IMG/VR virus record: IMGVR_UViG_3300048839_001886
Location: 1-37,863 of that record
From: a virus
DNA length: 37,863 nucleotides
Strand: one strand, 5' to 3'
The translations under genes were made by a program, and so were the position numbers. Position 1 is the first letter of the stretch, and each line of letters opens with the position of its first letter. The notes beneath the pieces are model-generated. The model made no database searches, was not told the DNA's origin, and worked only from the letters and a program-made list of their open reading frames with translations. Below are positions 10,735-35,128 of this stretch, piece by piece.

Positions 10735-11372
10735 TCATTTCCTGGAAAACGCCCTGCGCAGCCTTTCTGCCACGTCCTTGCGACTTGGCTTCACCCAGCC
10801 GCGCCCATCCAACGTCTTGTCGTCGATCCGCTTCATGCCGGCGATTTCTCCCTGATCGCCGGAGGTTTTGTCAGCCATGCCGGGAATGGTGCGCCTGATG
10901 AAATCGACCTTGCCGGAAAGGGCCAGAAGGAGCCTGTGAATGGGCGTGCGCATCACCGCATCGTCCGTCCAGCCGAGCCAGCCCGTCGCCAGGCGGTAAA
11001 GCTCGTCCCAGTACTCCTCCAGGCCGATCAGTTTCCCCCGGCCTCCTCCGCTTCCCCATCGCCAGCCGCCTGCCCGCCGGCCAGAAGCAGGGCGAGGAAA
11101 TCGGAAAGCGTGCCGCCGATGGCCGCCTTGTCGGGGGATTTCCAGATGGCTTCCGCGAGGGCGTCGAATTCCTTCGGCTTCAGCGCCAACCCGGCCCCGG
11201 CGGCGACGACAACGGCCATGGCGTCGAAATTGATATCCGACACCCGCTGGAAGGCGGGCCGGAGACCGCCCAAGACGCCATTGATCGAGCGGACGGCGGA
11301 AAGGGTCGGCTCCAGACGGTATTCCTCGCCGCCCACCGTGACGGAAAGCGGCGCCTGCGTGGATTTTCCCAT
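10735..11372 (-). CDS. Tail assembly chaperone gpGT-type fusion via -1 frameshift
   Basis: The 114-residue gpG-like protein ends at a TGA (11028-11030). The slippery heptamer GGGAAAC lies immediately before this stop. A -1 slip continues into a second open frame to 10735, adding 98 residues that begin LIGLEEYWDELYRLATGWLG and continue MRTPIHRLLLALSGKVDF, a tail-chaperone-like segment. The order between major tail protein and tape measure is exactly where lambda G/GT and many siphoviruses encode this recoded pair. The long form should link the tail-tube protein to the tape measure during assembly. The second frame has no ribosome-binding site of its own. Confidence 0.85.
11028..11372 (-). CDS. 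Tail assembly chaperone gpG-like, short form (114 aa)
   Basis: Short product made without frameshifting. It opens with a beta-rich segment (PLSVTVGGEEYRLEPTLSAV), has a helical middle (ALKPKEFDALAEAIWKSP) and an acidic, glycine-rich end (AAGDGEAEEAGGN). This matches gene-transfer-agent and siphovirus tail chaperones. ATG 11372 has AAGGTGG upstream. An in-frame GTG at 11381 is an alternative. Confidence 0.82.
   Translation of the reverse strand: MGKSTQAPLSVTVGGEEYRLEPTLSAVRSINGVLGGLRPAFQRVSDINFDAMAVVVAAGAGLALKPKEFDALAEAIWKSPDKAAIGGTLSDFLALLLAGGQAAGDGEAEEAGGN
11031..11037 (-). promoter_or_regulatory. -1 programmed frameshift slippery heptamer
   Basis: Reads G GGA AAC on the minus strand, then TGA. 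Both tRNAs can re-pair in the -1 frame (GGG AAA). It has the X XXY YYZ form and differs only in the last base from lambda's GGGAAAG. Direct contact with the stop codon should favour slippage. Confidence 0.82.
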
Positions 11373-11382
11373 GTGCGCCACC

Positions 11383-11859
11383 TTAGACCGCCGCGACTTC
11401 GATCAGGTCGCTGTTGATGGCAAGCGGAATGTTCTTTCGCACCACGTTGTCGTTTTTGCCGACCACCAGCCGGTCACCGAGGACCTGGGCGCGGAAATAG
11501 AAGGTGGTGGGGGAGGACGGCGATCCGGTCCCGGCGTCGTTGAGGGTGATCTTGACCGTGTAGTTGTTCTTGGAGGCGAAGGCCGCCTTGACGGCCGCCT
11601 GTCCGGCATTGCCGGAAGAAAACCCGACCACCAGGTTGAGCGTGCCGGCATCCTTGGTGGTCTTGAAGCGGCGCACCCGACCGTCCGCCAGGGCGGCGAA
11701 TTCCGTGGTGTTCCACTGGTCGCCGAATTCGCCGATATCTTCCACCTCGCCGATTTCGGTCCAGGATTGGGCTTCGTATTCGGCCTGGGTATCGACGGAA
11801 TCGTTGGCGTCTTCCGAGCCGATGTAGAGCTTCGAGCCCTGAGCGGTATTGACGGCCAT
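11383..11859 (-). CDS. Major tail (tube) protein (158 aa)
   Basis: Likely polymerises into the tail tube. The N-terminus MAVNTAQGSKLYIG and the following SWTEIGEVEDIGEFGD are typical of GTA/HK97-like tail tube proteins. The C-terminal half is beta-rich (VKITLNDAGTG, FYFRAQVLGDRLVVG, NIPLAINSDLIEV). It precedes the gpG/gpGT gene. ATG 11859 has AGAAGGA upstream. Confidence 0.88.
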   Translation of the reverse strand: MAVNTAQGSKLYIGSEDANDSVDTQAEYEAQSWTEIGEVEDIGEFGDQWNTTEFAALADGRVRRFKTTKDAGTLNLVVGFSSGNAGQAAVKAAFASKNNYTVKITLNDAGTGSPSSPTTFYFRAQVLGDRLVVGKNDNVVRKNIPLAINSDLIEVAAV

Positions 11860-11882
11860 GGCGCGTATCCTTCTGTTGCTGA

Positions 11883-12272
11883 TTAGAACTCGTAGAGAAC
11901 GCGGAGGGTGACGGAGCCCATGAAGGTTTCCCCGTCGATATCGGGGGCGATGCGCTTGCGGACGACACGGACCCGGATCATGCGGCCGTGCTCCATCGCC
12001 AGCTTCTTTTCGTGCAAGGCGGCGTCGATATCGGCGACGATGCCGGAGACTTCCTTCTTGCCTCGGTACCTCGACCAGACGGACAGGGTAACGAAGGCTT
12101 CCGTCCGACGGCCGGACAGGCTGTCCGCCGGCTGCTCGATCACGTCGCCGACGGTCACGTAGGGCAAGGCGCATGAATGCGGGGCCTTGCCGTCATACAC
12201 CGGCACGGACAGGGCGGCGTCGAGTGCGGCATAGAGCGCCTTTTGCATCGCCCACTGGTAATCGGTCGCCAT
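11883..12272 (-). CDS. DUF3168 tail completion protein (129 aa)
   Basis: Tail terminator or completion protein of the DUF3168/gp17 type. It has the hallmark opening (MQKALYAALDAALSVPVYD, then PYVTVGDVIEQPAD) and the middle SGRRTEAFVTLSVWSRYRGK, ending in a beta strand (FMGSVTLRVLYEF). It lies between the HK97 gp10-like protein and the tail tube protein, the usual order. Confidence 0.9.
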   Translation of the reverse strand: MATDYQWAMQKALYAALDAALSVPVYDGKAPHSCALPYVTVGDVIEQPADSLSGRRTEAFVTLSVWSRYRGKKEVSGIVADIDAALHEKKLAMEHGRMIRVRVVRKRIAPDIDGETFMGSVTLRVLYEF

Positions 12273-12275
12273 GCT

Positions 12276-12719
12276 TCAGCCCCCCGCCTTCGCCCGTTCC
12301 ATGCCGCGCGTCACGGCGTCGCGGATCAACGCTTCGATTTGTTCCCGGTTCAGGTCGAGGGCCGGAGCCATGAAGGGTCTTGGCGCGCGCGCAGGCACGC
12401 GCATGACGTAGGACTTGGAACTGCCGCGACGGCGATAGTTCACCTCTCCCCCCTTGGTGCCGAATTCCAGGAACCGGGCGTAGTAGAAATCGGAAGCCAA
12501 CACGTCCGTCGGCAGGCCGATCCGGGCGGAAAGACCGCTTTCGCCGATGGCCTTGGTGAGCGCGGCGGCCAGGGCGCCCGTATCCTTCGGCGCCAGGGCC
12601 TGCATGTCCCTGATGACCAGATCGGCTGCCTGGGAGATGGCGGCTTCCACTTCTTCCCGCACGGCGGCGGGAATGCGGCGGATGGCGGCAACCACCTTCG
12701 CGGTTCCTGTCACGGGCAT
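12276..12719 (-). CDS. HK97 gp10-like tail completion protein (147 aa)
   Basis: Minor head-tail joining protein. Diagnostic features are a helical N-terminus (VREEVEAAISQAADLVIRDM), APKDTGALAAALTKAIGE, then DFYYARFLEFGTKG and the C-terminal RPFMAPALDLNREQIEALI, all typical of HK97-gp10_like. Position between head-tail adaptor and DUF3168 protein fits. Confidence 0.92.
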   Translation of the reverse strand: MPVTGTAKVVAAIRRIPAAVREEVEAAISQAADLVIRDMQALAPKDTGALAAALTKAIGESGLSARIGLPTDVLASDFYYARFLEFGTKGGEVNYRRRGSSKSYVMRVPARAPRPFMAPALDLNREQIEALIRDAVTRGMERAKAGG

Positions 12720-12723
12720 GGCG

Positions 12724-13056
12724 TCAGCCGTTCGTCACGCCGGATTCCGCCTCGACCGTGCGGAACGGTTCGCGCCCGGCCATGGGCGCGGCGCGGACGT
12801 TGAGGGTCAGCGAGTCCCATGTCAGGCGGTCGGCTTCCGTCACGCCGGACCAGATGCCGGAATTCCGGGCCGTGATGCGCCATGTCTGCACGCCCGCCTG
12901 CCGGTCGGCGATGACACGTTCCTGTCCGCGCACCGGGTCCACCCGCGCCCATACCGTTCCGAGCGTGGTCGCGACGACGGACGCCCCGCCGCCACCGTCC
13001 GCCGTTTCGGTCATCCGGACCACGGAAACCCGCTGATCGAGCCTTCCGGCGTGCAT
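12724..13056 (-). CDS. Phage head-tail adaptor / closure protein (110 aa)
   Basis: Belongs to the Phage_H_T_join family (SPP1 gp16, HK97 gp9-like). Visible signature: AGRLDQRVSVVR near the N-terminus, TVWARVDPVRGQERVIADRQ, and TWRITARNSGIWSGVTEADR toward the end. The ATG at 13056 overlaps the preceding stop as ATGA. Upstream in-frame sequence belongs to the antisense-frame shadow of the connector gene, so longer starts are rejected. Confidence 0.9.
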   Translation of the reverse strand: MHAGRLDQRVSVVRMTETADGGGGASVVATTLGTVWARVDPVRGQERVIADRQAGVQTWRITARNSGIWSGVTEADRLTWDSLTLNVRAAPMAGREPFRTVEAESGVTNG

Positions 13057-13655
13057 CAGCACCCCCATACCCTGTAGGGGATCAACAGGGCATCGACCGC
13101 CCGCGGGAGCGACGCGACCTGAAGGCCGTTTTCCGCCAGCACGTCGGAGCGATGCTCGAACCAATGCCCGATCAGCAGCAGCATCGCCAGCTTGATCGAC
13201 TGCGGCACGTTGGCGACCAGGTCGGGCGGGCTGTTGCCGTCGTCCGGATAGCCGGCGACGAAACGTACCGTCACGGCCCCGGTGACGGGATAGGTGGAGG
13301 GCCAGGATTGTCCATATGACGGCGTGATCCGGGCCGGCTCGGAAGCGGCATCGACCAGGTAGTACGCGCCCGCCAAGGTCTGGCTTGCCCCGGCATCGTC
13401 CAGGTAGGAAATCGACGCGACGGAACGCAGGGGTGGCAACGGCACCTCGATCAAGCATGGGAAGCGGTCAAGCTTCAGGTCCCATGTCTGTTGCACCAGA
13501 ACCCGGCCGGTGGCGGCCTCGCAATGCTCGCGCGCCGCCAGGATCAGGGCGGAAATCAGGGCGTCCTCGTCCGTTCCGTCGACCCGAAGATGCGCCTTCG
13601 CTTCGGCGAGCGTCACCGGTTCGACCGCTGGGGTTGAAACGAGAACGAGGGCCAT
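13056..13655 (-). CDS. Head-tail connector, gp6-like (199 aa)
   Basis: Member of the phage connector family (HK97 gp6 / phiE125 gp8-like) attached to the portal. The N-terminus has the typical PAVEPVTLAEAKAHLRVDGT and DALISALILAAREHCEAATG sequence, followed by VQQTWDLKLDRFP and VAS-rich strands. It continues with SIKLAMLLLIGHWFEHR. These match the conserved architecture of the family. Confidence 0.93.
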   Translation of the reverse strand: MALVLVSTPAVEPVTLAEAKAHLRVDGTDEDALISALILAAREHCEAATGRVLVQQTWDLKLDRFPCLIEVPLPPLRSVASISYLDDAGASQTLAGAYYLVDAASEPARITPSYGQSWPSTYPVTGAVTVRFVAGYPDDGNSPPDLVANVPQSIKLAMLLLIGHWFEHRSDVLAENGLQVASLPRAVDALLIPYRVWGC

Positions 13656-13656
13656 G

Positions 13657-14427
13657 TCACCGGAACCTTTCGATCAGACCGGCGACCTGAGCCGGGGTTA
13701 TGCCGTCGAGCGCCGCCCGGCATTCCGGGCAGGGGTCGAATTTGCCGCAAGCCGCACCGCTGCCCAGATTGTGGTGGTCCGGGTAGCCGGTCACGGCCGG
13801 CGAGACGAATCCGCCGAAGACGATGACGGCGGGGGTTCCGAAAGCCGCCGCCGCGTGATGCAGACCCCCTTCCGGGCCGACATGCAGGGCGGCTCGCAGC
13901 ACGACCCCGGCCGCCTGCCGGAAATCGTCCGTCTTCAGGTGATGGACACCGTGGAGAGGACGGGAATCGGGGCCAAGGCATTGCACGAAGCGGACGCCTG
14001 GCAGGCGGTTGACGACCTCCTGCCACCGGTCGAACCCCCAATCCTTGTTGGGGCTGTTGATCGGGTTGATGTTGGGCTCGATCGTCATGTACCGCCCCCC
14101 GGCGCGCAACTCTTCGCCGATGGCAATTTCAGCTTGGGAAAGCACCAGGCGCGGCCGAAAGCCGTAGGGACGCCAGTCCGTCCGGAAGTGCCATCGCCGC
14201 GCCGCGTTGTCCCACCGGTCGATATAGGGACGCGCGCCGGGGCCGTTGACGATATCCACCCCAGCCGTTTCGCCTGGCTTGGCAACGAGGGGGTCGTCCT
14301 TCCAGGCATCGTGTTGCCGGCGGCGGCCGTCCACCCCCAGGATGGCGCAGCGCCCGGCGGACGGACCCGCTTCGCGCACCGCATGCGCCGCCAGCCCGGC
14401 CGCCATCAGTTCGTCGCCCCATCCCAT
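13657..14427 (-). CDS. Glycosyltransferase family 9-like protein (256 aa)
   Basis: Resembles ADP-heptose-type LPS heptosyltransferases (GT9). The N-terminus GWGDELMAAGLAAHAV fits the start of phage GT9-like proteins. The C-terminal half carries the donor-site-like block HVGPEGGLHHAAAAFGTP followed by AVIVFGGFVSP. A cysteine pair (FDPCPEC) lies near the end. It is shorter than cellular heptosyltransferases (about 330), missing much of the N-terminal domain. It lies within the head module beside three other carbohydrate-related genes. The acceptor could be virion protein or host glycan; I cannot tell. Confidence 0.75.
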   Translation of the reverse strand: MGWGDELMAAGLAAHAVREAGPSAGRCAILGVDGRRRQHDAWKDDPLVAKPGETAGVDIVNGPGARPYIDRWDNAARRWHFRTDWRPYGFRPRLVLSQAEIAIGEELRAGGRYMTIEPNINPINSPNKDWGFDRWQEVVNRLPGVRFVQCLGPDSRPLHGVHHLKTDDFRQAAGVVLRAALHVGPEGGLHHAAAAFGTPAVIVFGGFVSPAVTGYPDHHNLGSGAACGKFDPCPECRAALDGITPAQVAGLIERFR

Positions 14428-14436
14428 GACGAGGAC

Positions 14437-15114
14437 TCAGCCCCAGGTCAGGAAAAAATCGCCCTGCATTCCGCCGCGACGGCGGTAGCCGAGACTTTCC
14501 AGCCAGTCGATGGCCGCATGATCCGAAACGCCGAACTTGGCGCCGTGTCCTTCCTTCTGTTCGACGCAGATTGCCGGCCTGCAACGGCGCAGCATGGCTT
14601 CGCCGCCCTTAAGCGCGAAGACCTCGTATCCTTCGCAGTCCAGCTTGACGAAATCGATATCGTCAAGCCCCCCCAAGAGGTCGTCCAGGCGCCGCAACGG
14701 GACGCCGTCGGCTGCATCGCCATCAACCCAGGTATCCCCGGAACTGGATGGACCGGTACGCATCCGCACCGTCCCGGACCTGTCCCCCAGGGCCATGGGC
14801 CAAAGTTCCACGCGGACGCCAAGATTCGGGACGTTCTTGCGGAAGCATTCGCGATGCGCGGCCACGGGCTCGAAGGCCTGGACCGTCGCGAAACGTGCCT
14901 GGAGATGCATGGACCAGAGTCCGGAATGGGCGCCGATATCGACGGCCGTCCGGAAGGAACGGCAGAACTTCAGGGCCGCTTCCAGCTTGTGAAACTGGTA
15001 GGTCGGATAACCGCCTTCCACCCGCTTGACGGTGTCCATCCACTCCTGGAGGTGCCGTTCGCCGGGCGGAAGCCAGACGCCGCGTTCCGCCCAAGGGGGC
15101 AGGTAGAATTCCAT
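14437..15114 (-). CDS. FkbM-family methyltransferase (225 aa)
   Basis: SAM-dependent O-methyltransferase. Motif I is VDIGAHSGLWSMHL (from residue 58), followed by VQAFEPVAAHRECF and the FkbM-type DFVKLDCEGYEVFALKGGE block. Family members often methylate sugars or glycan-linked groups. ATG 15114 has AAGGG seven bases upstream. ATG 15120 would overlap the preceding stop as ATGA but is too close to the ribosome-binding site. It sits between a GT9-like and a capsule-synthesis-like gene, which supports action on a glycan. Confidence 0.82.
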   Translation of the reverse strand: MEFYLPPWAERGVWLPPGERHLQEWMDTVKRVEGGYPTYQFHKLEAALKFCRSFRTAVDIGAHSGLWSMHLQARFATVQAFEPVAAHRECFRKNVPNLGVRVELWPMALGDRSGTVRMRTGPSSSGDTWVDGDAADGVPLRRLDDLLGGLDDIDFVKLDCEGYEVFALKGGEAMLRRCRPAICVEQKEGHGAKFGVSDHAAIDWLESLGYRRRGGMQGDFFLTWG

Positions 15115-15116
15115 GG

Positions 15117-15857
15117 TCATTCCCTTCCGATGGCTTCCCAGCAGGAGCCGTGGGAGATCTCGTCCAGCGTCCATTGGTTTTCCGCCAATTTCCAGAGAAC
15201 CAGTTCCCGCAACGGCCGTTCCGGCGCCTCGATCCTGGACAGGTCGCCGGTTCCCAAGGCAAGCCCAGCGCACGGCGCGGTGCAGAAGACGTGGACGCCA
15301 TCCATTGCGGCCTCGACGGCCGCATTGCTGGAATGGGTAACCAGTGCCCAGCAGCCCTTCAGGTCGGCGGACAGAGGGCGCGAATTAGCCTGGCCCCGCG
15401 CCCGCGTCCGGATCGGCCTGTCGGTATGCCGTCGCAGTTCCGCCGCGACGTTTTCCGCCCACGCGGCCCCGGAGAATCCCAGGAGGCCGGCGAACAGGTC
15501 GTCCGGCGGGCACAGCAGGATATGCCCCCCTTCCGTCCGCCACGGCTTGATGGACAGTCCGAATGACGCGAAGCGGTCAGGCTGGGCGTCGCCCCATCCG
15601 TCGTGTTGCAGGTCGCCCCGCGTCACCCGGAAATATTCCCCGCGCCCGAAATATCCATGGTCGCCGTACCACCAGTCGCGACCCTCCGCCCTGGCCTGGG
15701 AAAGCAGGTCCCAAAGGGCAGGCGAGCCGAACAGCGCGACCGGGCCGGGCCGGAGCCCCCCATCATCCGCCACGGTCCCGCCGCAACCTTCGGCGAAGGC
15801 GCGGCAGAAGCGGGGCGAGGTCTTTTCCGTCGGCACGGCGTAGCTGATCGGCGTCAT
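15117..15857 (-). CDS. Capsule-polysaccharide-synthesis-like glycosyltransferase (246 aa)
   Basis: The C-terminal half has SADLKGCWALVTHSSNAAVE and DGVHVFCTAPCAGLALG, resembling the conserved donor-binding region of KpsC/KpsS-type Kdo transferases (VTxxSxxxxEAxxxGxPV). The N-terminal half contains DWWYGDHGYFGRGEYFRVTR, a motif I associate with phage-encoded relatives. A short C-terminal ENQWTLDEISHG ends the protein. Exact sugar and acceptor are unknown. It overlaps the next gene by four bases, indicating coupled translation within the cassette. Confidence 0.6.
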   Translation of the reverse strand: MTPISYAVPTEKTSPRFCRAFAEGCGGTVADDGGLRPGPVALFGSPALWDLLSQARAEGRDWWYGDHGYFGRGEYFRVTRGDLQHDGWGDAQPDRFASFGLSIKPWRTEGGHILLCPPDDLFAGLLGFSGAAWAENVAAELRRHTDRPIRTRARGQANSRPLSADLKGCWALVTHSSNAAVEAAMDGVHVFCTAPCAGLALGTGDLSRIEAPERPLRELVLWKLAENQWTLDEISHGSCWEAIGRE

Positions 15858-16471
15858 GACAGTACGTCCTTCAGATCAGCGATCGGGAAGCAGTCCAGGG
15901 CCGACCCTGGCGTGCAGTTGATGACTTCCACGCCGGACTTTTCCAGGTCGGGGAGCGTGGTGCGGAAATTCTCGATCCAGTCGCGGTAGGGGGAATCCTT
16001 CCGGAGCGCGCCGGGATGTTCCCCGAACCAGTGGCGCCGCCCGTCCGCCCCCGGCTTCATATCGAACCCGAGGAGCACGATGCGTTCAGCGCCCATCAGA
16101 ACCGCCAGGTTGAGGGCCTGGTATCCGGAATTGCCGCCCTGGTGGATCGTTCCCGGCGTCAGCGACAGTCCGGGATTCGGCAGGCTTTCCCACCATGAAA
16201 GCCCGTATCGTTCCGCCGTCTTCAGGTCGGCCGGACGATTGCCGTAGGGACCCAACTGCGTCCAGCGCATGCCGGAAAATTCGGGAACGCCGTCGTGATG
16301 TTCCCACCATGCGGCATCGGCGGCATAGAGGGCATCGGCGAAAGGCGCAAGACGCCAGGCGTCGTTGACGGCGATCACCCGGCACCTTCCCGCAAGCAGG
16401 CCAACGCGGTCCGGGGACAGGCTGGGACCGGACGCGACGATCCCGACCGTTTCCCCGGACCAGTCCGGCAT
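15854..16471 (-). CDS. DUF115-like / sugar-transfer-associated Rossmann protein (205 aa)
   Basis: An N-terminal glycine-rich nucleotide-binding-like motif (ETVGIVASGPSLSPDRVGLL) is followed by VIAVNDAWRLAPFADALYAA and a central GNSGYQALNLAVLMGAERIV then LLGFDMK. This pattern resembles DUF115/MAF-like and phage sialyltransferase-like proteins that handle nucleotide-linked sugars. It begins the four-gene carbohydrate cassette and lies directly after the capsid-adjacent gene with no gap. Enzymatic activity is inferred. Confidence 0.6.
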   Translation of the reverse strand: MPDWSGETVGIVASGPSLSPDRVGLLAGRCRVIAVNDAWRLAPFADALYAADAAWWEHHDGVPEFSGMRWTQLGPYGNRPADLKTAERYGLSWWESLPNPGLSLTPGTIHQGGNSGYQALNLAVLMGAERIVLLGFDMKPGADGRRHWFGEHPGALRKDSPYRDWIENFRTTLPDLEKSGVEVINCTPGSALDCFPIADLKDVLS

Positions 16472-16942
16472 TTAGCTCACCACCTCGGAAACCGTGGTGG
16501 CGTCGCTCGCCGGAGCATAGCGGGCGTTGTGCCCCAGGATCACGGCGAAGATATCGCTCTTCGCCGATGCCGGGGAATTGACCGCGTCGCCGACCGTCAC
16601 CGAAAGGCGGACGTGGGTGAAGGCGTTCGCCACGTCCAGTTCTTCCGAGCGCAGGTTGATGATGGCCTGGTGGTCGTTCTTGGACCCGGCCTTGGTCAAC
16701 TGGGTGATCGCCTTGCCGGAGATGTCCTTGGCCCCGGTGCCGCTGGCGTCGGTGGCCTGTTGCAGCACGGCGTCCACCGTGCCGCCGGTTTCCATGTCCC
16801 CCACGCCCACGATGGCCTGAAGACTTTCGTAGGTCGCCATGGAAACCCACCCGGTGGTTGCCGTGCCGGGGCTGGTCTGGTCGGGGTCGATCACCGCCGC
16901 CAGGACGGCCCGATTGGAAGGGAGAATGTTCGGATTGCTCAT
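16472..16942 (-). CDS. Capsid-adjacent structural protein, possible head decoration (156 aa)
   Basis: Immediately follows the major capsid gene. The sequence is rich in Ala, Thr, Ser and Asp with beta-like stretches (TATTGWVSMATYESLQAIVG, FTHVRLSVTVGDAVN). No family is recognised. Position suggests a head decoration or minor structural protein. If the virion is glycosylated, the many Ser/Thr residues would make it a candidate acceptor, but that is speculation. Confidence 0.55.
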   Translation of the reverse strand: MSNPNILPSNRAVLAAVIDPDQTSPGTATTGWVSMATYESLQAIVGVGDMETGGTVDAVLQQATDASGTGAKDISGKAITQLTKAGSKNDHQAIINLRSEELDVANAFTHVRLSVTVGDAVNSPASAKSDIFAVILGHNARYAPASDATTVSEVVS

Positions 16943-16963
16943 GGTCTGCTGCCTTGTCCTGGA

Positions 16964-18244
16964 TTACGAGCGGGTCGCGAGTCTGACGAAATGGCTGAGC
17001 GTCGCGCTTCCCTTGTTGGGCGTGACGGCGGCGGAAAGATAGGGCTGCCCGCCGAAACGGAAGGTCCAGCGGAAAGCCTGGATCCCATAGTCGAAGTAGA
17101 GATGCATCGAAGACGCGGCCTTGATGCCGGAGGCCTTGTAGGCCGCGTAGTAGCCCTTCGGATCGACGAACTGGAGGTCGCCGGCCGTGCCCAGGGCCTC
17201 GCAATGATGCGAGAACCGCACCGGACGCCCCAACAGGAAGCCGCCGGGGGCGCCGACGAAGCCGGAGGAAGGCGGCATCCAAATCGGCTGCTGGCCAAGG
17301 GTCATGGTCATCAACTGCGGCAAAGCCGACTGGTTGACATACCAGGTGGCCCCGGCCGGATTGATGTTCCGGGAGAACATATTCGCCACGTTGGCGGCCA
17401 CCACCGTGGCGGCCGTCTGGCCGCTTTCCTTGGCGACCGTGACCAGGGCGCTCGACTTGGTCCAGCCGAGCGGCTGCCCGGCCCCGGTGCCTTCGAACAT
17501 CGCCTTGTTGATCTTCCAGCGCAGCGCCTGAGCGGCCTTCGCGGTCAGGCGGGCGTTCAAACGCGGCGCGTCTTCAAGCAATTCCTCGGTGGCGAGCACG
17601 AAACTGTAGAGTTCGTGGAGCTTGGTTTCGCGCTGCTCGGTCGCCAGACGGGAGGACGACATCTGGGAGCCCTCGGAACGCCACGAGGCCGAAACGCCGG
17701 ACGCCCCCCACGGAGTGGTTTCGTCGGCAAACATCTGCACCGCGTTGGAGTTGGTCGGCTCGGAATCGACCTCGGAAAGCAGGTCGTCCTCGGCGAACAT
17801 CAGGGACCAGATTTCCTGACGCAGGGCCGGAGGCACCATGTAGCCGTCGGAAGACCCGCCTTCCCGGTGGAAATCGGCCGGGGCCGCCATCATGGCGGAA
17901 AGGCGCGGGTCGACCTGGATCACGCCGCCGGGACGGGGAGACGCCATCCGCACCGCCGCGGCGAAATCGGCCAGCGAGGTGAAGCCATGCCGGCCATCCC
18001 CGGCGGGGGCAGCGCCGGACGATCCGGTGTCGGGGGAGCCGGCGGCCTGACGCTGGGAATCCAGATGGCGTTCCAGGCGCGAAATCTGGTCGTTTACGTC
18101 GCTCAGTTCGGCGTGAATGGCGTCGTCGCGGGCCTTTTCGTCGGCGGACAGGTCCCGCTTTTCGTCTTCGGCGGCCTTGAAAATCCGGCCGGCTTCGGCC
18201 AGCAGGGCGGCCTTCTTGTCCTTGAGGTCACGCATGGTCGGCAT
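16964..18244 (-). CDS. HK97-family major capsid protein (426 aa)
   Basis: Forms the icosahedral head. The N-terminal 75 residues are a charged coiled-coil delta/scaffold domain (MRDLKDKKAALLAEAG, HAELSDVNDQISRLERHLD), probably removed by the S49 protease. The mature shell domain follows, including GSSDGYMVPPALRQEIWSL, SWRSEGSQ, ALRWKINKAMFEGTGAGQPL, ATWYVNQSALPQLM and a C-terminal YGIQAFRWTFRFGGQPYLSA. Length is typical. A ribosome-binding site (AAGGGA) lies six bases before the ATG. Confidence 0.96.
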   Translation of the reverse strand: MPTMRDLKDKKAALLAEAGRIFKAAEDEKRDLSADEKARDDAIHAELSDVNDQISRLERHLDSQRQAAGSPDTGSSGAAPAGDGRHGFTSLADFAAAVRMASPRPGGVIQVDPRLSAMMAAPADFHREGGSSDGYMVPPALRQEIWSLMFAEDDLLSEVDSEPTNSNAVQMFADETTPWGASGVSASWRSEGSQMSSSRLATEQRETKLHELYSFVLATEELLEDAPRLNARLTAKAAQALRWKINKAMFEGTGAGQPLGWTKSSALVTVAKESGQTAATVVAANVANMFSRNINPAGATWYVNQSALPQLMTMTLGQQPIWMPPSSGFVGAPGGFLLGRPVRFSHHCEALGTAGDLQFVDPKGYYAAYKASGIKAASSMHLYFDYGIQAFRWTFRFGGQPYLSAAVTPNKGSATLSHFVRLATRS

Positions 18245-18346
18245 GGGAAGTCCCTTTCGCGGGCCGGGAATGATGAAGCACCGCCCGCGCCCCGGCGGCG
18301 CACGGAACGGATCGGCCGCCCTGCGGCCGGGATCGTCTTGAATCGG
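18245..18346 (-). other. Protease-capsid intergenic region with a GC hairpin
   Basis: About 100 bases between the head protease and capsid genes. The segment 18313-18329 is a perfect inverted repeat, CGGCCGC-CCT-GCGGCCG. No T-run follows on the minus strand, so it is a poor terminator. It could stabilise or process the mRNA ahead of the highly expressed capsid gene. Confidence 0.4.
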
Positions 18347-19312
18347 TCAGAGGGTCGAGGCCAGCCGCAGGCGGCGGCGGCGATAGTCGATTTCGCCGGC
18401 ATGCAAGGCATCGCATTCGGCTTCCGGTGACGGCTGGGCTTCGGCCACGCCGCCTTGCGGCGCGGGAACGTTGCCGCCAAGCCCGGCAAGGACGTTTCGT
18501 AGCGTGTCGATCCGGTCGACCATGCCGAGTTCCACGGCTTCGCGTGCCAGCACGGTACGGCCTTGGCCGAAGCCGGAAAGGACGGCATCGGGCTTCACGC
18601 CGCGCCCGGCGGCCACGTCGGCCACGAACATGGAATGGAACATGTCGACATCGGCCTGCATTCGGGCGCGCGCCTCGTCCGTCAGGGGCTCGAACGGATT
18701 GCCTTCCGTCTTGAATCGGCCAGCGGAAACCAGGGTGGTTTTCACGCCCATCGTCTTCATGGCCTCGGAAACATCCTGGTGCATGGCGTAGACGCCGATG
18801 GACCCGACCCGGCCGGACGGCGTGACCACGAAACGGTCCGCCTGGGACCCGAGCCAGTAGGCGGCGGAAGCCGCCATGGTGTCGGCGACCGCGACAATCG
18901 GCTTCGCCCCGCCCCGTGCCGCCCTGATTTCCGCCGCCGCTTCAGGTATCCCGGAAACCGAGCCGCCGGGGCTGTCGATCAGCAGCACGACGGCGCCAAC
19001 GCCGGGATCGGCGACGGCTTCGGCGAAGTCTGCCCGGAACATGCCGATGGAAGTGGTGCCGAACAGCATGTCGACGATGCTGGGACGATGGGCGATCAGG
19101 CCGACGAGCGGAACCACCGCGACAGAGCCGCTGCGCACGCGGCCGATCCTGGATCGGCGGGAAGCGGCAACAGCCCCTTCGATCTTCTCGGCATCGCGGC
19201 GGATATCGAGCAAGCCGTCCTGAATTTTCGCCAGCGCCTCGGGCATGACCGCCCAAGGGGTGTCGTTGACGGTGCCGAATAGGGAGAAATCGCGGTCGTC
19301 GATATCGGGCAT
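18347..19312 (-). CDS. S49-family head maturation protease (321 aa)
   Basis: SppA-like serine protease (ClpP/crotonase fold) that matures the prohead. The core has VVLLIDSPGGSVSG, DTMAASAAYWLGSQAD with the likely nucleophile Ser149, PSGRVGSIGVYAM, and SAGRFKTEGNPFEPL with the general base Lys201. It lies between portal and capsid, as in many GTA-like and HK97-like phages. The last 40 residues are low-complexity and could be a scaffold-binding tail. Confidence 0.94.
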   Translation of the reverse strand: MPDIDDRDFSLFGTVNDTPWAVMPEALAKIQDGLLDIRRDAEKIEGAVAASRRSRIGRVRSGSVAVVPLVGLIAHRPSIVDMLFGTTSIGMFRADFAEAVADPGVGAVVLLIDSPGGSVSGIPEAAAEIRAARGGAKPIVAVADTMAASAAYWLGSQADRFVVTPSGRVGSIGVYAMHQDVSEAMKTMGVKTTLVSAGRFKTEGNPFEPLTDEARARMQADVDMFHSMFVADVAAGRGVKPDAVLSGFGQGRTVLAREAVELGMVDRIDTLRNVLAGLGGNVPAPQGGVAEAQPSPEAECDALHAGEIDYRRRRLRLASTL

Positions 19313-19315
19313 GGA

Positions 19316-20569
19316 TCACCCCTCCTTGACGAGTTCGAGGCGGCCTGTCGCGGCCGGCGGTTTCTGGTCCGACGGGGGCGTTCCGGCAGGAACCATGTTG
19401 AGCGGCTGGAGGTATTGGTCCCCGTTGTCTACCGGGTCCTGGTTCTCCAGCTTGCGGATATCGTTGACGGACAGCCAACCCCATTGCCTGCCGATGGCGT
19501 AGGCCTGATACCTTGCCAGCGTGTCGCCGCGCAGCAGGCCGCGCACGTCGAATTCCGCGAACACCCCGTCTTCGGCGATCAGGCGCGAGGTAATGCTCTT
19601 TTCCCAGCGGGTCAGCCACGGAAGGAGGGTGTCCGTGACAAATTCGAGGCCCTGGTGCTCGATGTTCGAGAAGGTTGCGTTGTCCAGGATTCCCACCTTG
19701 TGGGGCGGCACCTTCCACAGGCGGCACAGGTCCTTGCCGAGTTCGCGCCTGGTTTCCAAGAACTGCGACTGCTCGTTGGTGTGCTGGAGCGGGACCGCCT
19801 TCATCCCGAATTCAAGGAGCGCCCACCGATGCGCGTTGCTTCGGGTAAAGGCGCGGCGCCACTTTTCCAGAAACGTCTTGCGACTTTCCCCATCCTTGAA
19901 GGAGCCGGGATGCTCGATGATGCCGCCCGGCCGGGCGTCGTTGGAGAAGAAGCGGGCGCCATAATCCTGCACGGCGATGGCCGCGCCGATCACTTCGCGC
20001 CCCGTTTCCGTGACTGGAATTCCCATCAATCCATCCGCCGTGAAGGGCGCCGCCTTCAGGTGCCAGATTTCGTCCGACGACAGGTTGCGGACGGTTCCGG
20101 TCTTGGCGTCGCTGACTTCGTACCAGACCGAGCCATCCTGCCCGAAGAAAGGCGTGACCAGAGACGGATGGATTGGCTTTAGGGTGTCCAGGTAGCCGCG
20201 CGGACCGGAAACGATTTCCGCATAGGCGTTGCGGTAGAGTCCGAGGTTCCATTGCATCAGCGATCGGAAGTCGTGTCCGGTCTGAAAACCGTTCGGGTCG
20301 GCGAAAACGGCGCTCACCGGATGATCGTGAAGCAGGGTCTTGGTTTCGTCGCCTTCCTTCCGGTAGACCTTCAGCGGGAGGCTCGCCAGAGGATCAGCGA
20401 GAGCCTGGAGGCAATCGATAACGACCGGGACCAGGAGAGCCTTTTCCGGGGTCACCGCAACGCCGGACCCCGCCATGACGAAGGAATTCAGGCCATACCA
20501 TTGATCGTCGGACGGATCTCGGGCCGGAGCGGAATCCGACATTCCCAGCAGCCGCCCCATCCATCCCAT
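19316..20569 (-). CDS. HK97-family portal protein (417 aa)
   Basis: Forms the dodecameric DNA entry channel. Signature segments include FVMAGSGVAVTPEKALLVPV, CLQALADPLASLPLKVYRK, the HPVSAVFADPNGFQTGHDFR region, VRNLSSDEIWHLKA, and near the C-terminus KVPPHKVGILDNATFSNIEH then FVTDTLLPWLTRWEKSITS. These match HK97/phage_portal. A typical length and position after terL support it. It stops four bases before the protease start. Confidence 0.96.
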   Translation of the reverse strand: MGWMGRLLGMSDSAPARDPSDDQWYGLNSFVMAGSGVAVTPEKALLVPVVIDCLQALADPLASLPLKVYRKEGDETKTLLHDHPVSAVFADPNGFQTGHDFRSLMQWNLGLYRNAYAEIVSGPRGYLDTLKPIHPSLVTPFFGQDGSVWYEVSDAKTGTVRNLSSDEIWHLKAAPFTADGLMGIPVTETGREVIGAAIAVQDYGARFFSNDARPGGIIEHPGSFKDGESRKTFLEKWRRAFTRSNAHRWALLEFGMKAVPLQHTNEQSQFLETRRELGKDLCRLWKVPPHKVGILDNATFSNIEHQGLEFVTDTLLPWLTRWEKSITSRLIAEDGVFAEFDVRGLLRGDTLARYQAYAIGRQWGWLSVNDIRKLENQDPVDNGDQYLQPLNMVPAGTPPSDQKPPAATGRLELVKEG

Positions 20570-20570
20570 G

Positions 20571-22103
20571 TCAGCACACCTCGTAATCGTCTGGTATTTC
20601 CGTCTGCGTTTCGGTCACGATGGCCGTGGCCGCCGCGCCCACCGCCATGGCGAGGGCGATCATGCCGTCTATCCGGCCCCGAGATCGGGCCTTGTCCAGT
20701 TTCCGGTTGCCGGCGGGGTCGCGTCGCACAACCGAGTTTGCCGCGCACATCGTCAGCACCGGGTGTCCGCCGTGCGATATGCGCCCGTTCAGCAGCAGGC
20801 TTTCCATGTCCCTGAGCGCGGGCGACATGGACTGGAATCCCTGGCCGAACTCAACGAAGCGCCCAAGCTCTTCCTCCGTGAATCCGGCCTTTTCGAGCCA
20901 TGGCTTCAGATGACGGAAGTTCCACCGGTCGAAGGCCATGGCCCGCACGTCGAACGCATCGAAAGTCCGCCGCAGGTCGTGGGCAACGAATTCGTAGTCG
21001 ACCGACGCGCCGGGGGTCGTTTCGAGCAGCCCGTCACGGTGCCAGATGTCGTATGGCACACGGTCTAGGCGCGATCTTTCTTCCAGCGTGGCGCCGGGGA
21101 GCCAGAACGTCGGACGCACCCCCCAGGTTCCGCCGCAATCGCAAATCAGCACCTTCGCCGTCAGGTCCGACGTTTCGGACAGGTCGAGGCCGCCGTAGAC
21201 GGGGCCTTTGAAATCGGGCACCTCGCCGCCGCATGATTCCCACACCGACCGGCTGACGAAGGGGTTCGTCGTTTCGACGCGCTGGTTCAGCACCAGATTG
21301 CGATATTGCGCCTCACGCGATGGCATGCGTCTGGCACTCTCCGCCATCGCCATGACTTCCGTCGCGTTCTGAAAATCTCCGAATGCAGGGTTGGCGAGAC
21401 GGATCGTCGCTTCCTCGAATGGGTCAAGGTCCGTCGGCGCCTCGTAAAGAAATAGCCTGGTTCGCGGATCGGCCCCGGTCTTCGCGTCGTCGATCAGCAG
21501 CGACAGAAGGTCGGAATCCGTTGGTGCCTGCGTCGAAATGACGATGGACAACGGCGATTCCTGTGCCCCGCAAGCGGTTTCCAGGGCCTCGAAAAGCTCG
21601 GAGCGCGGCCCCTTCACCTGGCCTAGCTCGTCATGCACCACGAAGACCGGAGAAAGCCCGTAAGCGGTGGAGGCATCGGCCGACAATGCCCTGTAGAGCG
21701 TTCCAAGCTCGCGGCACAGAAGCTGTTTCGCCGTGTCGCGCACCGCGACATGCGCGCTCAGGTCTGGCGACATGCGCACGACCTTTGCCGCCAGGCTGAA
21801 CAGGATGGCCGCCTGATCGCGCGATTGCGCCGCGCTGAAAAGCTGGCTGTTCGGCGTCGCCTCCGGCCCAACAAGGTGCAGCAGGAGAAGGAAGGCGCTC
21901 AAGGTCGTCTTCGCATTCTTGCGGCCGAACGAAATGATCGCCGTACGGGTTGGGCGGTCATAGATGCCCAGGATGATCCTGCGTTGCCAGTCGCGAAGCT
22001 TGACCGGTTGACCGACGAACTTGCCTTCCGGAATTCGGCATGCCGATTCGATCCAGGCGATATTCCGTTCGCCCCTGGTCAATCCGCCCCGTCGAATTCC
22101 CAT
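20571..22103 (-). CDS. terL: Terminase large subunit (510 aa)
   Basis: DNA-packaging ATPase and nuclease. The ATPase domain has a Walker A variant SFGRKNAKTT (residues 59-68), as in HK97-like terminases, and a Walker B FVVHDELGQ with Asp158 and Glu159. The nuclease domain has YGGLDLSETSD (Asp307) and ends with a DKARSRGRIDGMIALAMAVG block. The N-terminus WIESACRIPEGKFVGQPVKL is also typical. It overlaps terS by 25 bases. Confidence 0.96.
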   Translation of the reverse strand: MGIRRGGLTRGERNIAWIESACRIPEGKFVGQPVKLRDWQRRIILGIYDRPTRTAIISFGRKNAKTTLSAFLLLLHLVGPEATPNSQLFSAAQSRDQAAILFSLAAKVVRMSPDLSAHVAVRDTAKQLLCRELGTLYRALSADASTAYGLSPVFVVHDELGQVKGPRSELFEALETACGAQESPLSIVISTQAPTDSDLLSLLIDDAKTGADPRTRLFLYEAPTDLDPFEEATIRLANPAFGDFQNATEVMAMAESARRMPSREAQYRNLVLNQRVETTNPFVSRSVWESCGGEVPDFKGPVYGGLDLSETSDLTAKVLICDCGGTWGVRPTFWLPGATLEERSRLDRVPYDIWHRDGLLETTPGASVDYEFVAHDLRRTFDAFDVRAMAFDRWNFRHLKPWLEKAGFTEEELGRFVEFGQGFQSMSPALRDMESLLLNGRISHGGHPVLTMCAANSVVRRDPAGNRKLDKARSRGRIDGMIALAMAVGAAATAIVTETQTEIPDDYEVC

Positions 22104-22507
22104 GGCCGTTTCGTCCCAACGCTCCCTTTTTTCTTCTGCTTGTCGTAAGTCGTCTGTTGCGTCAGGCGCATCCGTGTCGCCAGGGACGACAGCGCGCGCC
22201 CCTCGCGCTCCTGCATCTTCAGAAGCTCGTCGTAACGCCCTACGTCGAATTCGCTATCGGAAGAGGTCTCCAGGGACTCAATCAGCTGCGCAACGCGACG
22301 AGCAGCCACGACATGGCGGCAGTACTGGACGAGAAGTCCGTGCGTTTCCCGGGGGAACCAGTCAGCGGGCAGCCTGTCGACGACAGCCCGCCACTCGTCC
22401 GCCTGCTCCGCCGTCAACTCGCGCGGCGGATCAGGGCGCGGCGAAACTGTCACAACCCCCGTTGATACCGACAGGGACGCTGCGGATTTCCTCCCTCTCT
22501 GCCTCAT
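22079..22507 (-). CDS. terS: Terminase small subunit, P27-like (142 aa)
   Basis: DNA-recognition partner of TerL. The sequence includes PPRELTAEQADEWRAVVDRL, PRETHGLLVQYCRHVVAARR and YDELLKMQEREGRALSSLAT then RMRLTQQTTYDK, matching P27-family small subunits. Its 3' end overlaps terL by 25 bases. The upstream region has only a weak ribosome-binding site (GGAAAG). Confidence 0.88.
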   Translation of the reverse strand: MRQRGRKSAASLSVSTGVVTVSPRPDPPRELTAEQADEWRAVVDRLPADWFPRETHGLLVQYCRHVVAARRVAQLIESLETSSDSEFDVGRYDELLKMQEREGRALSSLATRMRLTQQTTYDKQKKKGSVGTKRPWEFDGAD

Positions 22508-22671
22508 AAGCTTTCCGGATTTGAAACTTTATTTCAGGGAATTTAGCTCAGCGTGACCCCCGTGCCGGTCCCCAGGCCGTTTAGGGCAGGGATTGCCACC
22601 CCCCTACCCGTCACCTACCCGTTCGGGGGTGTGGCACAGGAGCAACGCGCGTGTCGTTTTTGCAACACAGG
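22508..22671. other. terS-HNH intergenic region
   Basis: About 160 bases with no supported gene. It contains a short AT-rich patch (22518-22545) and C-rich and G-rich runs. In HNH-terS-terL phages a cos site can lie near here, but no palindrome or repeated motif could be assigned to packaging. Confidence 0.25.
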
Positions 22672-22980
22672 TCAGCGGCGCCAGTGATCGCCCGGATCAA
22701 GCGGGTTGCCTGCCAGGTCGGCGCCACGGAGCCGGCCGGAGCGGTCAAGCGACTGCTTGGCACCGTCGTGGCACGACTTGCACAGGGATTGCAGGTTGGT
22801 CTGGTCGAGGGCCAGCCGGGCATCGCCACGATGCGGTATGACATGGTCGACCACGGTTGCCTGGGTGACTCGGCCGACGGCCTGGCACAGCGCACAGAGG
22901 GGGTGGAGGGAGAGCTGGGCCTCTCGCAGCTTGCGCCAGGAGGCGGAGCTATAGACCCAGCGCCAAGGGTGCTGCCCCAT
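22672..22980 (-). CDS. HNH endonuclease (102 aa)
   Basis: Small HNH nuclease found beside terminase genes of cos-packaging phages, where it assists packaging-site cleavage. Zinc-binding Cys29-x2-Cys32 and Cys67-x2-Cys70 flank the core DHVIPHRGD (Asp45, His46), and TNLQSLCKSCHDGAKQ closes the fold. ATG 22980 follows GGGGGGCGAG. A TTG 15 bases upstream is less likely. It is the first gene of the leftward late operon. Confidence 0.92.
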   Translation of the reverse strand: MGQHPWRWVYSSASWRKLREAQLSLHPLCALCQAVGRVTQATVVDHVIPHRGDARLALDQTNLQSLCKSCHDGAKQSLDRSGRLRGADLAGNPLDPGDHWRR

Positions 22981-23261
22981 CTCGCCCCCCCTCAACGCAA
23001 GACGCCCCAGCTATTGCCGGGGCGCGAAAATCCAATGGTGCCTAAGTAGGGCACAATCTATGACGCGGGTCAATGTAATTGTGGAGGCCACCAGGGCTCG
23101 CTGCACGAGGACGTGTCGATGACCGCGTCATCGCCCATCATCCCACCCCCCCCCACAAATTAGTTGTTGACACCACCAGCTAGGGGCCTTATTATGGGAC
23201 CCATCAGACAGGGGATTGACCCCAAGGGCGCACCGCCAAGCCAGGTGCAGGAGCAACGACA
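22981..23261. other. Divergent intergenic region between late operon and plus-strand island
   Basis: About 280 bases without a gene. It holds the strong rightward promoter at 23167-23195, a poly-C tract near 23145 and a short inverted repeat GTGCC/GGCAC around 23038-23055. The leftward late promoter is expected here but only weak candidates were seen. Confidence 0.55.
23167..23195 (+). promoter_or_regulatory. Near-consensus sigma70 promoter of the plus-strand island
   Basis: TTGACA (23167-23172), a 17-base spacer and TATTAT (23190-23195). This is a perfect -35 and a five-of-six -10 with ideal spacing. The start site would fall near 23202, giving about a 60-base leader before the ATG at 23262. 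No copy of the repressor palindrome is nearby, so it may escape lysogenic silencing. Confidence 0.75.
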
Positions 23262-23798
23262 ATGACCGACACCATCACTCTTACCCCGAGTGCCTTGCAC
23301 ACCATCCTTGCCGACTACAACGTCGAGCCGACCAAGGTCTACTGTGCCGCCGCTGGCGCGGATTACGGATCCGTCGAGTGTTGGGCCCTGCCGGACAGTC
23401 AGCACACCGACGGTCTCGGCTACCTGATCGCTTACGGCGATAACGGGGAGACGCAATATATCATCGATGACGATGTCGACGACCTCGCGGCTTGGCTGGA
23501 GTACGACGACCTGCAAGGCGTCGACTACTACGTGCAACGTGCCAATGTGCGCGGCATCGACGCAGTAGACGCCGCAGAGAGCGACGACGAGGGGACGTAC
23601 TACATCCTTGAGACGTGCTACAACTACGGCCCGTCGGAGGTGACGGACGTTGTCCGGTACGATGGCCGCCGGCAGGATCCCCTTGAGTTTGCCACGCTGG
23701 CGGAGGCGCAAGCCTGGATCGACGATGCCAACGATACCGCCTACACCATGTCGCACAACGAGTCTGGCCGTCCCTCGTACAAGATCATTGCCGCCTAA
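23262..23798 (+). CDS. Highly acidic hypothetical protein (178 aa)
   Basis: Unknown function. I count about 35 Asp/Glu against about 8 Lys/Arg, so the protein is very acidic, with clusters such as YIIDDDVDDLAAWLEYDDL and ESDDEGTYYILE. Three Cys are present. A C-terminal AEAQAWIDDANDTAYTMSHN segment looks like a small folded motif. No membrane segment. ATG follows CAGGAGCAACGACA. It is first behind a strong promoter. Acidic phage proteins include DNA mimics, but that is only one possibility. Confidence 0.72.
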   Translation: MTDTITLTPSALHTILADYNVEPTKVYCAAAGADYGSVECWALPDSQHTDGLGYLIAYGDNGETQYIIDDDVDDLAAWLEYDDLQGVDYYVQRANVRGIDAVDAAESDDEGTYYILETCYNYGPSEVTDVVRYDGRRQDPLEFATLAEAQAWIDDANDTAYTMSHNESGRPSYKIIAA

Positions 23799-34984: not shown

Positions 34985-35028
34985 ATGAACAAATTGTTGT
35001 TGACCGCCCATGAACATTATGTTCATAT
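34985..35028 (+). promoter_or_regulatory. PR promoter-operator module
   Basis: TTGACC (35000-35005), a 17-base spacer and TCATAT (35023-35028). The palindrome ATGAACATTATGTTCAT (35010-35026) is perfect and covers the spacer and -10. A second degenerate site starts at 34985 (ATGAACAAATTGTTGTT), 25 bases upstream. The same layout is found at 33329-33372. Drives the rightward operon starting at 35129 with about a 95-base leader. Confidence 0.82.
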
Positions 35029-35128
35029 CCTCCTGTCGCCACCCACGGCGACGACCCTCTCCCAGACCCCGGCGGCGGTCCCTCTAAGCCGCCGGGGAAG
35101 GGAAGGGGGAAACAGGAGGAGGAAGAAC

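What the first reader, a model, noticed from the sequence alone, without database searches (positions are those of the whole stretch)
13657..16471. Four-gene carbohydrate-modification cassette embedded in the head module
A GT9-like glycosyltransferase, FkbM methyltransferase, KpsC/S-like transferase and DUF115-like protein lie between the capsid-adjacent protein and the head-tail connector, all co-directional with tight junctions (one overlap of four bases). Placement in the late structural operon suggests late expression and possibly virion glycosylation, or late alteration of host surface sugar. A dedicated capsid-glycan system in such a phage would be unusual.
Basis: partly seen in the sequence, partly recalled or inferred. 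Interest (0 to 1): 0.8.

Follow-up and report, generated by a model that had tools for sequence, protein, structure and literature searches.

The report
Phage head-gene sugar-modification cassette
A bacterial virus carries four sugar-handling enzymes in the middle of the genes that build its head, an arrangement found in many other phages, and the most likely role is to coat part of the virus particle with sugar, which has not been tested.

Summary
Four minus-strand genes at 13657-16471 (Maf/DUF115-like, KpsC-like, FkbM methyltransferase, GT9-like) lie tightly packed between a capsid-adjacent protein and the head-tail connector. Two junctions, not one, are 4-base ATGA overlaps. It is not a freak of one phage. 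Of the 80 best DUF115-like relatives kept out of 444 in IMG/VR, 56 lie between same-strand head and neck genes; where the contig has 3 kb on both sides, 37 of 40 do. A DNA-methyltransferase control gave 1 of 11. Eighteen fetched loci keep the order DUF115-KpsC-FkbM-GT9, and 12 of them lie MCP-[four genes]-connector. The closest head relatives have the slot empty (0 of 39 carry cassette genes). Predicted structures place the first enzyme nearest Maf flagellin O-glycosyltransferase (Z 15.6) and the second nearest KpsC beta-Kdo transferase (Z 11.6), although the KpsC catalytic Asp is not conserved. Best reading: a mobile, late-expressed cassette that puts a short, methylated nonulosonate/Kdo-type glycan on a virion protein. 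Acceptor and chemistry are untested, and late modification of host surface sugar remains possible. Capsid glycosylation is known in mycobacteriophages, so this is a new variant of a known kind.

The parts
16964..18244 (-). Major capsid protein (context, upstream boundary of the head slot)
   Evidence: PF05065 5.3e-42; phrog_10 4.9e-50
16472..16942 (-). Capsid-adjacent 156-aa protein of unknown function (P156; possible decoration protein and possible acceptor, untested)
   Evidence: phrog_28483 1.9e-54; stop directly abuts the DUF115 start
15854..16471 (-). Cassette gene 1: DUF115/MptE-like glycosyltransferase with Maf-like fold
   Evidence: phrog_4603 5e-46; PF01973 23.7 bits, below the cut-off 34.6; AF2 model pLDDT 90.4; VIA best 5mu5 Maf Z 15.6, 176 residues, 3.2 A
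15117..15857 (-). Cassette gene 2: KpsC-like (beta-Kdo transferase fold) glycosyltransferase
   Evidence: AF2 model pLDDT 95.5; all 21 Foldseek PDB hits at E<=1e-3 are Kdo transferases; VIA KpsC Z 11.6, 221 residues, 4.6 A
14437..15120 (-). Cassette gene 3: FkbM-family methyltransferase (ATG at 15120, overlapping the stop of gene 2)
   Evidence: PF05050 1.2e-17, 65 bits, cut-off 22.7; phrog_8156 3.6e-30; start read, translation
13657..14427 (-). Cassette gene 4: GT9-like (heptosyltransferase-like) glycosyltransferase
   Evidence: PF01075 20.4 bits, cut-off 22; 24 of 27 family members hit PF01075; profile hits WaaF 1psw 2.2e-4
15854..15857 (-). ATGA overlap of genes 1 and 2
15117..15120 (-). 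ATGA overlap of genes 2 and 3
13056..13655 (-). gp6-like head-tail connector (context, downstream boundary of the slot)
   Evidence: PF05135 2.1e-10; phrog_442 2.2e-32

Best explanation
A compact, horizontally moving glycan cassette sits in a permissive slot of the head operon and is made late, together with the capsid and connector. Proposed steps: (1) the Maf-like DUF115 enzyme puts a CMP-activated nonulosonate or Kdo-type sugar from the host pool on Ser/Thr of a virion protein (capsid or the capsid-adjacent protein 16472-16942 being the first candidates); (2) the KpsC-like and GT9-like enzymes extend it; (3) the FkbM enzyme O-methylates a sugar of the chain. The sugar coat would protect or retune the particle outside the cell. 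Shown here: the genes, their order, folds and families, the co-directional tight packing, and the repeated occupation of the same slot in other phages. Inferred: the donor, the acceptor, the order of steps, and the benefit.
For: Position: 56 of 80 DUF115-like relatives lie between same-strand head and neck genes, 37 of 40 with 3 kb on both sides, 28 of 31 at 70% clustering, and 0 of 80 have virion genes on the opposite strand. The control family gave 1 of 11. Eighteen loci have the order DUF115-KpsC-FkbM-GT9 and 12 have MCP-[4]-connector, several of them near-duplicates. Named phages: Psp6 (MCP, DUF115-like, a gene, methyltransferase, connector), phi1, Tetraselmis virus S20. In P1 the DUF115 homologue pmgO and the glycosyltransferase pmgQ lie downstream of an annotated late promoter. 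Fold: Maf is best for gene 1 and KpsC/WbbB for gene 2. A characterised Maf moves Neu5Ac and Kdo onto Ser/Thr of a protein (PMC11339370, abstract and passages). L034 carries a cytidylyltransferase (PF02348 4.5e-25) inside its cassette, fitting a CMP-sugar donor. Slot genes elsewhere are rich in methyltransferases and glycosyltransferases. The slot is empty in close head relatives: connector within 100 bases of P156 in 29 of 39, cassette genes in 0 of 39. The same four genes sit one gene further on in L081, between connector and gp10.
Against: No acceptor protein or modified particle is shown. The KpsC nucleophile Asp160 falls on a conserved Phe in the profile alignment, so the Kdo chemistry is doubtful. 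Foldseek alone gives no match at E<=1e-3 for gene 1; only the re-alignment ranks Maf first. Relatives outside the head slot exist: CcrColossus after tail genes and before lysis genes, Pelagibacter phage Mosig, L012 and L017, and 18 of the 35 GT9 loci are not bracketed, many being short contigs. Of 40 GT9 relatives in bacterial genomes 27 have no virion marker nearby and 16 have no cassette partner, so that family also serves hosts. The survey of 80 is the top of 444 and so favours close relatives.
Confidence: 0.55

Rival explanations
1. The cassette acts on host LPS or capsule late in infection: it alters the receptor so that progeny are not trapped on debris or on the producing cell, or so that sister phages are excluded.
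For: KpsC- and GT9-type enzymes normally build LPS or capsule (families named). None of the four proteins has a membrane-spanning stretch (maximum 19-residue hydropathy 1.63), compatible with peripheral cytosolic LPS enzymes. GT9 relatives occur in host chromosomes.
Against: Gene 1 is nearest to a protein O-glycosyltransferase. No flippase, ligase or membrane partner is in the cassette. The repeated tight fixing between MCP and connector is not needed for a host-surface function. No separate promoter was seen.
Confidence: 0.27
2. Passenger island: the MCP-connector gap is merely a permissive site, like other moron sites, and the enzymes serve mixed purposes.
For: Slots elsewhere also hold HNH, AP2, radical SAM and collagen-like genes; slot length runs from 730 to 9692 bases.
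Against: The same four families in the same order recur in phages with different head genes, which points to a working unit.
Confidence: 0.12
3. The enzymes glycosylate phage DNA (hypermodified bases) against restriction.
For: Phage glycosyltransferases with that role exist (cited in PMC12619734).
Against: In the 30 proteins of this window scanned against PHROGs no hydroxymethylase or TET-like enzyme was found, only a DNA methyltransferase and a weak thymidylate-synthase-family hit inside the helicase; the record may be incomplete. Folds point to Maf and KpsC, not to DNA glucosyltransferases.
Confidence: 0.04

Closest known systems
Virion glycosylation of mycobacteriophages (Che8, Corndog, Myrna; Freeman 2023, known here only through citing papers)
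   Same: Phage-encoded glycosyltransferases; in those phages capsid or tail-tube proteins carry glycans.
   Different: Other hosts; in the related phage Maravista the glycosyltransferase genes lie near the 3' end of the genome rather than in the head module; no Maf/KpsC/FkbM/GT9 set is described in the passages seen. Glycans are shown there and not here. The enzyme families were not compared here.
Maf flagellin O-glycosyltransferases (PF01973; 5mu5; CbMaf)
   Same: Fold of gene 1, Z 15.6 over 176 residues; partial PF01973 hit.
   Different: Only the central domain is present (205 aa against 632 aa); below the Pfam cut-off; genomic setting is a phage head operon.
KpsC/WbbB beta-Kdo transferases
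   Same: Fold of gene 2.
   Different: Shorter protein, about 9-11% identity, catalytic Asp not conserved in the profile alignment.
Phage P1 pmgO-pmgP-ppp-pmgQ region
   Same: DUF115 homologue (31% identity over the whole protein) with a glycosyltransferase downstream of an annotated late promoter.
   Different: Not between MCP and connector; no KpsC-like, FkbM or GT9 gene was labelled there.
Caulobacter jumbo phages (CcrColossus and relatives)
   Same: DUF115-like, KpsC-like and GT9-like genes together.
   Different: Between tail and lysis genes; the FkbM homologue is elsewhere in the genome.

Membership tests
FkbM methyltransferase (PF05050) | Score above Pfam gathering cut-off | tested here: met
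   65 bits against 22.7
GT9 (PF01075) | Score above Pfam gathering cut-off for this protein | tested here: not met
   20.4 against 22 bits; hence 'GT9-like'
GT9 (PF01075) | Profile homology of the family to solved heptosyltransferases | tested here: met
   WaaF 1psw 2.2e-4, WaaC 2gt1 3.3e-4; 24 of 27 members hit PF01075
GT9 (PF01075) | N-terminal Gly-x-Gly-Asp with catalytic-type Asp (motif role recalled) | tested here: met
   D5 in 27 of 27 rows
MptE-like/Maf (PF01973) | Score above Pfam gathering cut-off | tested here: not met
   23.7 against 34.6 bits
MptE-like/Maf (PF01973) | Fold of the central Maf domain | tested here: met
   5mu5 Z 15.6; Cst-I/II and MptE about 11.8; unrelated rows below 9
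MptE-like/Maf (PF01973) | Transfer of a nonulosonate to Ser/Thr of a protein | not testable with these tools
   needs biochemistry
KpsC beta-Kdo transferases | Kdo-transferase fold | tested here: met
KpsC beta-Kdo transferases | Catalytic Asp (KpsC D160) | tested here: not met
   aligned to a conserved Phe; identity is about 11%, so the alignment could be shifted
PHROG 4603 ('alpha-2,3-sialyltransferase') | Profile match over most of the protein | tested here: met
   5e-46, residues 12-204; the name is an annotation, not a tested activity
Phage virion glycosylation system | Glycan covalently on capsid or tail protein | not testable with these tools
   needs mass spectrometry of particles
Phage virion glycosylation system | Co-expression with virion genes | tested here: inconclusive
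   architecture agrees; no transcript data

The most novel reading that the evidence does not exclude
Many siphophage-like viruses, those tied to a host here being mostly of proteobacteria, share a hot slot between capsid and connector genes that holds exchangeable protein-glycosylation cassettes led by a Maf-type enzyme, so that their heads carry nonulosonate- or Kdo-based, often methylated glycans. Capsid glycosylation would then be a common and variable trait of tailed phages rather than a mycobacteriophage curiosity.
Probability: 0.45. Interest if true: 0.82.

Novelty: new variant of a known kind. Interest (0 to 1): 0.62.

Why it matters
If particles of such phages carry the predicted glycan, head glycosylation would be widespread in tailed phages and would vary by cassette exchange at one defined site. 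It would give phage biology a simple genomic marker (a DUF115/Maf-like gene after the capsid gene) for predicting a modified virion, and a family of small soluble protein glycosyltransferases to study. It would also correct annotations that call these proteins sialyltransferases or hypothetical proteins.

Tried and rejected
DNA glycosylation was considered and set aside: no hydroxymethylase or TET-like enzyme in the 30 scanned proteins. Recent foreign origin by composition: GC (0.64-0.69) and GC3 (0.76-0.81) of the cassette do not differ from neighbours (GC3 0.77-0.87). Own promoter or terminator: none on the minus strand inside the cassette; the seven terminator-like sites in the stretch are fewer than the shuffled mean of 9.8. 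Homology of genes 1 and 2 to each other: none. PDB sequence search with single proteins gave nothing useful, nor did the DUF115 profile. KpsC-like loci could not be fetched from the single sequence or from its alignment. KpsC-like genes are rare in bacteria: 4 of 385 genomes of the class of the L081 genome and 2 of 297 of the order of the M. jarvisii genome, the centres included. Of four further places read with wider flanks, L237 is a prophage with the cassette in the head slot, L238 lies beside tail genes, and L239 and L240 show no virion marker with my profiles.

Weaknesses of the survey: marker genes were called with profiles grown from the window's own proteins and retrained on the fetched loci, ORFs were mechanical, several loci are near-duplicates (61 clusters at 90%, 55 at 70% of 80), and the 80 are the best of 444. 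The slot ORF set is 144 ORFs from 39 of the 56 bracketed slots, after dereplication at 85% and after dropping ORFs labelled DUF115. The first FkbM coordinates I used (14437-15138) began 18 bases upstream of the ATG, at a codon that is no start; corrected to 15120.

Claims about print: searches in a library of open-licence papers returned no paper whose title or abstract start describes a Maf/KpsC-type cassette between capsid and connector genes; subscription papers and preprints are not covered. Freeman 2023 was not held and is known only through citing passages. The role of the WaaC-type Asp and the gene-name habits of phage annotation are recalled.
Full report
What is there. The window is an IMG/VR virus record of 37,863 bases. 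Its packaging, head and tail genes run on the minus strand: terminase small and large subunits, portal, S49 protease, major capsid protein, a 156-aa protein (P156, phrog_28483), the four cassette genes, a gp6-like connector, HK97-gp10-like protein, tail genes. The cassette is 16471-13657. Gene 1 (205 aa) begins directly after P156 ends. Genes 1 and 2, and 2 and 3, overlap by ATGA; genes 3 and 4 are 9 bases apart; one base separates gene 4 from the connector. A consensus scan found no minus-strand promoter in 11000-23300 and no minus-strand terminator in the cassette, so co-transcription with the head genes is likely, not shown.

What the enzymes are. Gene 3 is an FkbM methyltransferase by Pfam (65 bits, cut-off 22.7). 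Gene 4 falls just short of the GT9 cut-off by itself (20.4 of 22), but 24 of 27 of its relatives hit GT9 at E<=0.01 and the family profile finds WaaF and WaaC among solved structures. Gene 1 matches phrog_4603 (5e-46), named 'alpha-2,3-sialyltransferase', and only weakly the MptE/Maf Pfam family (23.7 of 34.6 bits). Its predicted structure (mean pLDDT 90.4) is closest to the Maf flagellin glycosyltransferase of Magnetospirillum (Z 15.6 over 176 residues, 3.2 A), then to Cst-I/Cst-II and an MptE-type enzyme (about 11.8). Foldseek alone gave no match at E<=1e-3. Gene 2 has a confident model (pLDDT 95.5). All 21 Foldseek matches at E<=1e-3 are KpsC or WbbB beta-Kdo transferases, with KpsC at Z 11.6. 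In the profile alignment the KpsC nucleophile Asp160 meets a conserved Phe, so I call gene 2 KpsC-like in fold and do not claim Kdo transfer.

Where relatives lie. A search with the DUF115 alignment found 444 relatives in IMG/VR, of which the best 80 were kept. In 56 of 80 the nearest virion genes on the same strand lie on both sides, mostly MCP, P156 or portal before and connector or gp10 after. With at least 3 kb on both sides it is 37 of 40 (exceptions L139, L153, L171). After clustering at 70% it is 28 of 31. No locus has virion genes on the other strand. The same procedure on relatives of the window's DNA methyltransferase gave 1 of 11 (18 loci fetched, 11 with enough flank). GT9-like relatives in IMG/VR (35 loci) have a KpsC-like gene within 8 kb in 33, FkbM in 30 and DUF115 in 21; 17 of 35 are bracketed by virion genes, 10 have a virion gene on one side only and 8 on neither; with 3 kb flanks it is 11 of 17. 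FkbM relatives (6 loci) carry all four genes in order in 4. Over all loci fetched by then (L002-L229), 18 show the order DUF115-KpsC-FkbM-GT9, 12 of them MCP-[four genes]-connector, with near-duplicates among the marine ones and unlabelled genes in some gaps; L224 has room for the four genes and no more between DUF115 and connector. Marine loci carry an extra gene of about 224 aa between genes 1 and 2.

Empty and filled slots. The closest relatives of the window's capsid and P156 (L037-L039; capsid 52-57% identity) lack the cassette, as does the best portal and protease relative L039, while the window's connector and cassette genes are closest to phages that have one. Among 39 P156 loci none has a cassette gene; in 29 the connector begins within 100 bases of P156; 10 could not be scored that way (8 without a called connector, some cut by the contig end, 2 with wider gaps). 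The Bradyrhizobium phage ppBdUSDA122-1 shows the same empty slot. Twelve of the 80 DUF115 loci do have P156. In L081, a bacterial MAG contig, the same four genes in the same order lie between connector and gp10 instead. So the cassette appears to move as a unit between neighbouring sites of the head-neck region; this is inference from order and presence, not from trees.

Named phages. Pseudomonas phage Psp6 has a DUF115-like gene, another gene and a methyltransferase between capsid and connector. Pseudomonas phage phi1 has an unannotated DUF115-like ORF there. Tetraselmis virus S20 has a long run of glycosyltransferase- and methyltransferase-annotated genes there. Exceptions to the slot: CcrColossus (between tail and lysis genes), Pelagibacter phage Mosig, Citrobacter phage phiNP (upstream of the terminase), Klebsiella phage Eowyn, and P1, where pmgO and pmgQ follow an annotated late promoter.

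Slot contents elsewhere. In 144 ORFs from 39 dereplicated slots, Pfam finds methyltransferases (up to 9 ORFs per family), GT2 (7), Glyco_trans_1_2 (4), FkbM (3), GT-D (1), sulfotransferase (2), radical SAM (5), B12-binding (3), collagen repeats (5) and one cytidylyltransferase. L034, outside that set, carries a cytidylyltransferase (4.5e-25) inside its cassette. That family includes CMP-Kdo and CMP-sialate synthetases (recalled), in line with a CMP-sugar donor.

How it probably works. Maf enzymes put nonulosonic acids on Ser/Thr of flagellin, and the C. botulinum enzyme also uses Neu5Ac and Kdo (PMC11339370, abstract and passages). By analogy gene 1 would prime a virion protein, genes 2 and 4 would extend, and gene 3 would methylate. 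The host would supply donors, as the cassette has no donor-making gene. This is inference. The host-surface reading stays open because KpsC- and GT9-type enzymes usually build surface polymers and because GT9-like relatives occur in bacterial chromosomes without the other partners (16 of 40).

Known or new. Glycosylation of capsid and tail-tube proteins is reported for mycobacteriophages Che8, Corndog and Myrna (passages in PMC12363180 and PMC12619734; the primary paper was not available). I found no paper in ten searches that describes this cassette or slot. I therefore rate it a new variant of a known kind, with a bolder reading (a common capsid-glycan slot in tailed phages) at 0.45.

Noticed in passing
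window 34985-36247 (+): 420-aa protein with many tandem repeats of a GAATASGDH type, with tail-fibre and collagen-like PHROG hits.
   Followed up: no
L034 5231-6139: Cytidylyltransferase (PF02348 4.5e-25) inside a head-neck cassette between DUF115-like and KpsC-like genes.
   Followed up: partly
L141 694-1545, L163 6206-6976, L172 8536-9885, L173 9310-9870, L198 9348-9977: Collagen-like proteins in the capsid-connector slot beside the sugar enzymes; possible head fibres and possible acceptors.
   Followed up: no
slot ORFs of 39 loci (alignment A6): Radical SAM in 5 and B12-binding domains in 3 of 144 slot ORFs, suggesting unusual sugar or peptide chemistry.
   Followed up: no
window 13657-14427 and relatives (alignment A2): The GT9-like subfamily has Cys227 and Cys236 in 27 of 27 and Cys233 in 26 of 27 rows, a possible metal site.
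   Followed up: no
L121 5956-6549 (Pseudomonas phage phi1): DUF115-like ORF left unannotated between capsid and connector in the public record.
   Followed up: partly
L013, L016, L019, L022, L027, L030, L031, L032: Marine loci have a shorter DUF115-like protein without the N-terminal part; start choice or real truncation not settled.
   Followed up: no
L096 and L102 (Mesorhizobium): Phage-like regions with a long island between capsid and portal holding DUF115-like, GT9-like and KpsC-like genes; in L096 also methyltransferase-like ORFs by eye.
   Followed up: partly
L237 (unnamed 4.6 Mb chromosome contig): Prophage with MCP, DUF115-like, two KpsC-like, GT9-like, FkbM and connector genes in that order.
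   Followed up: partly
window 23167-23195 (+): Promoter-like site matching 11 of 12 consensus positions just before the plus-strand ORF at 23262.
   Followed up: no
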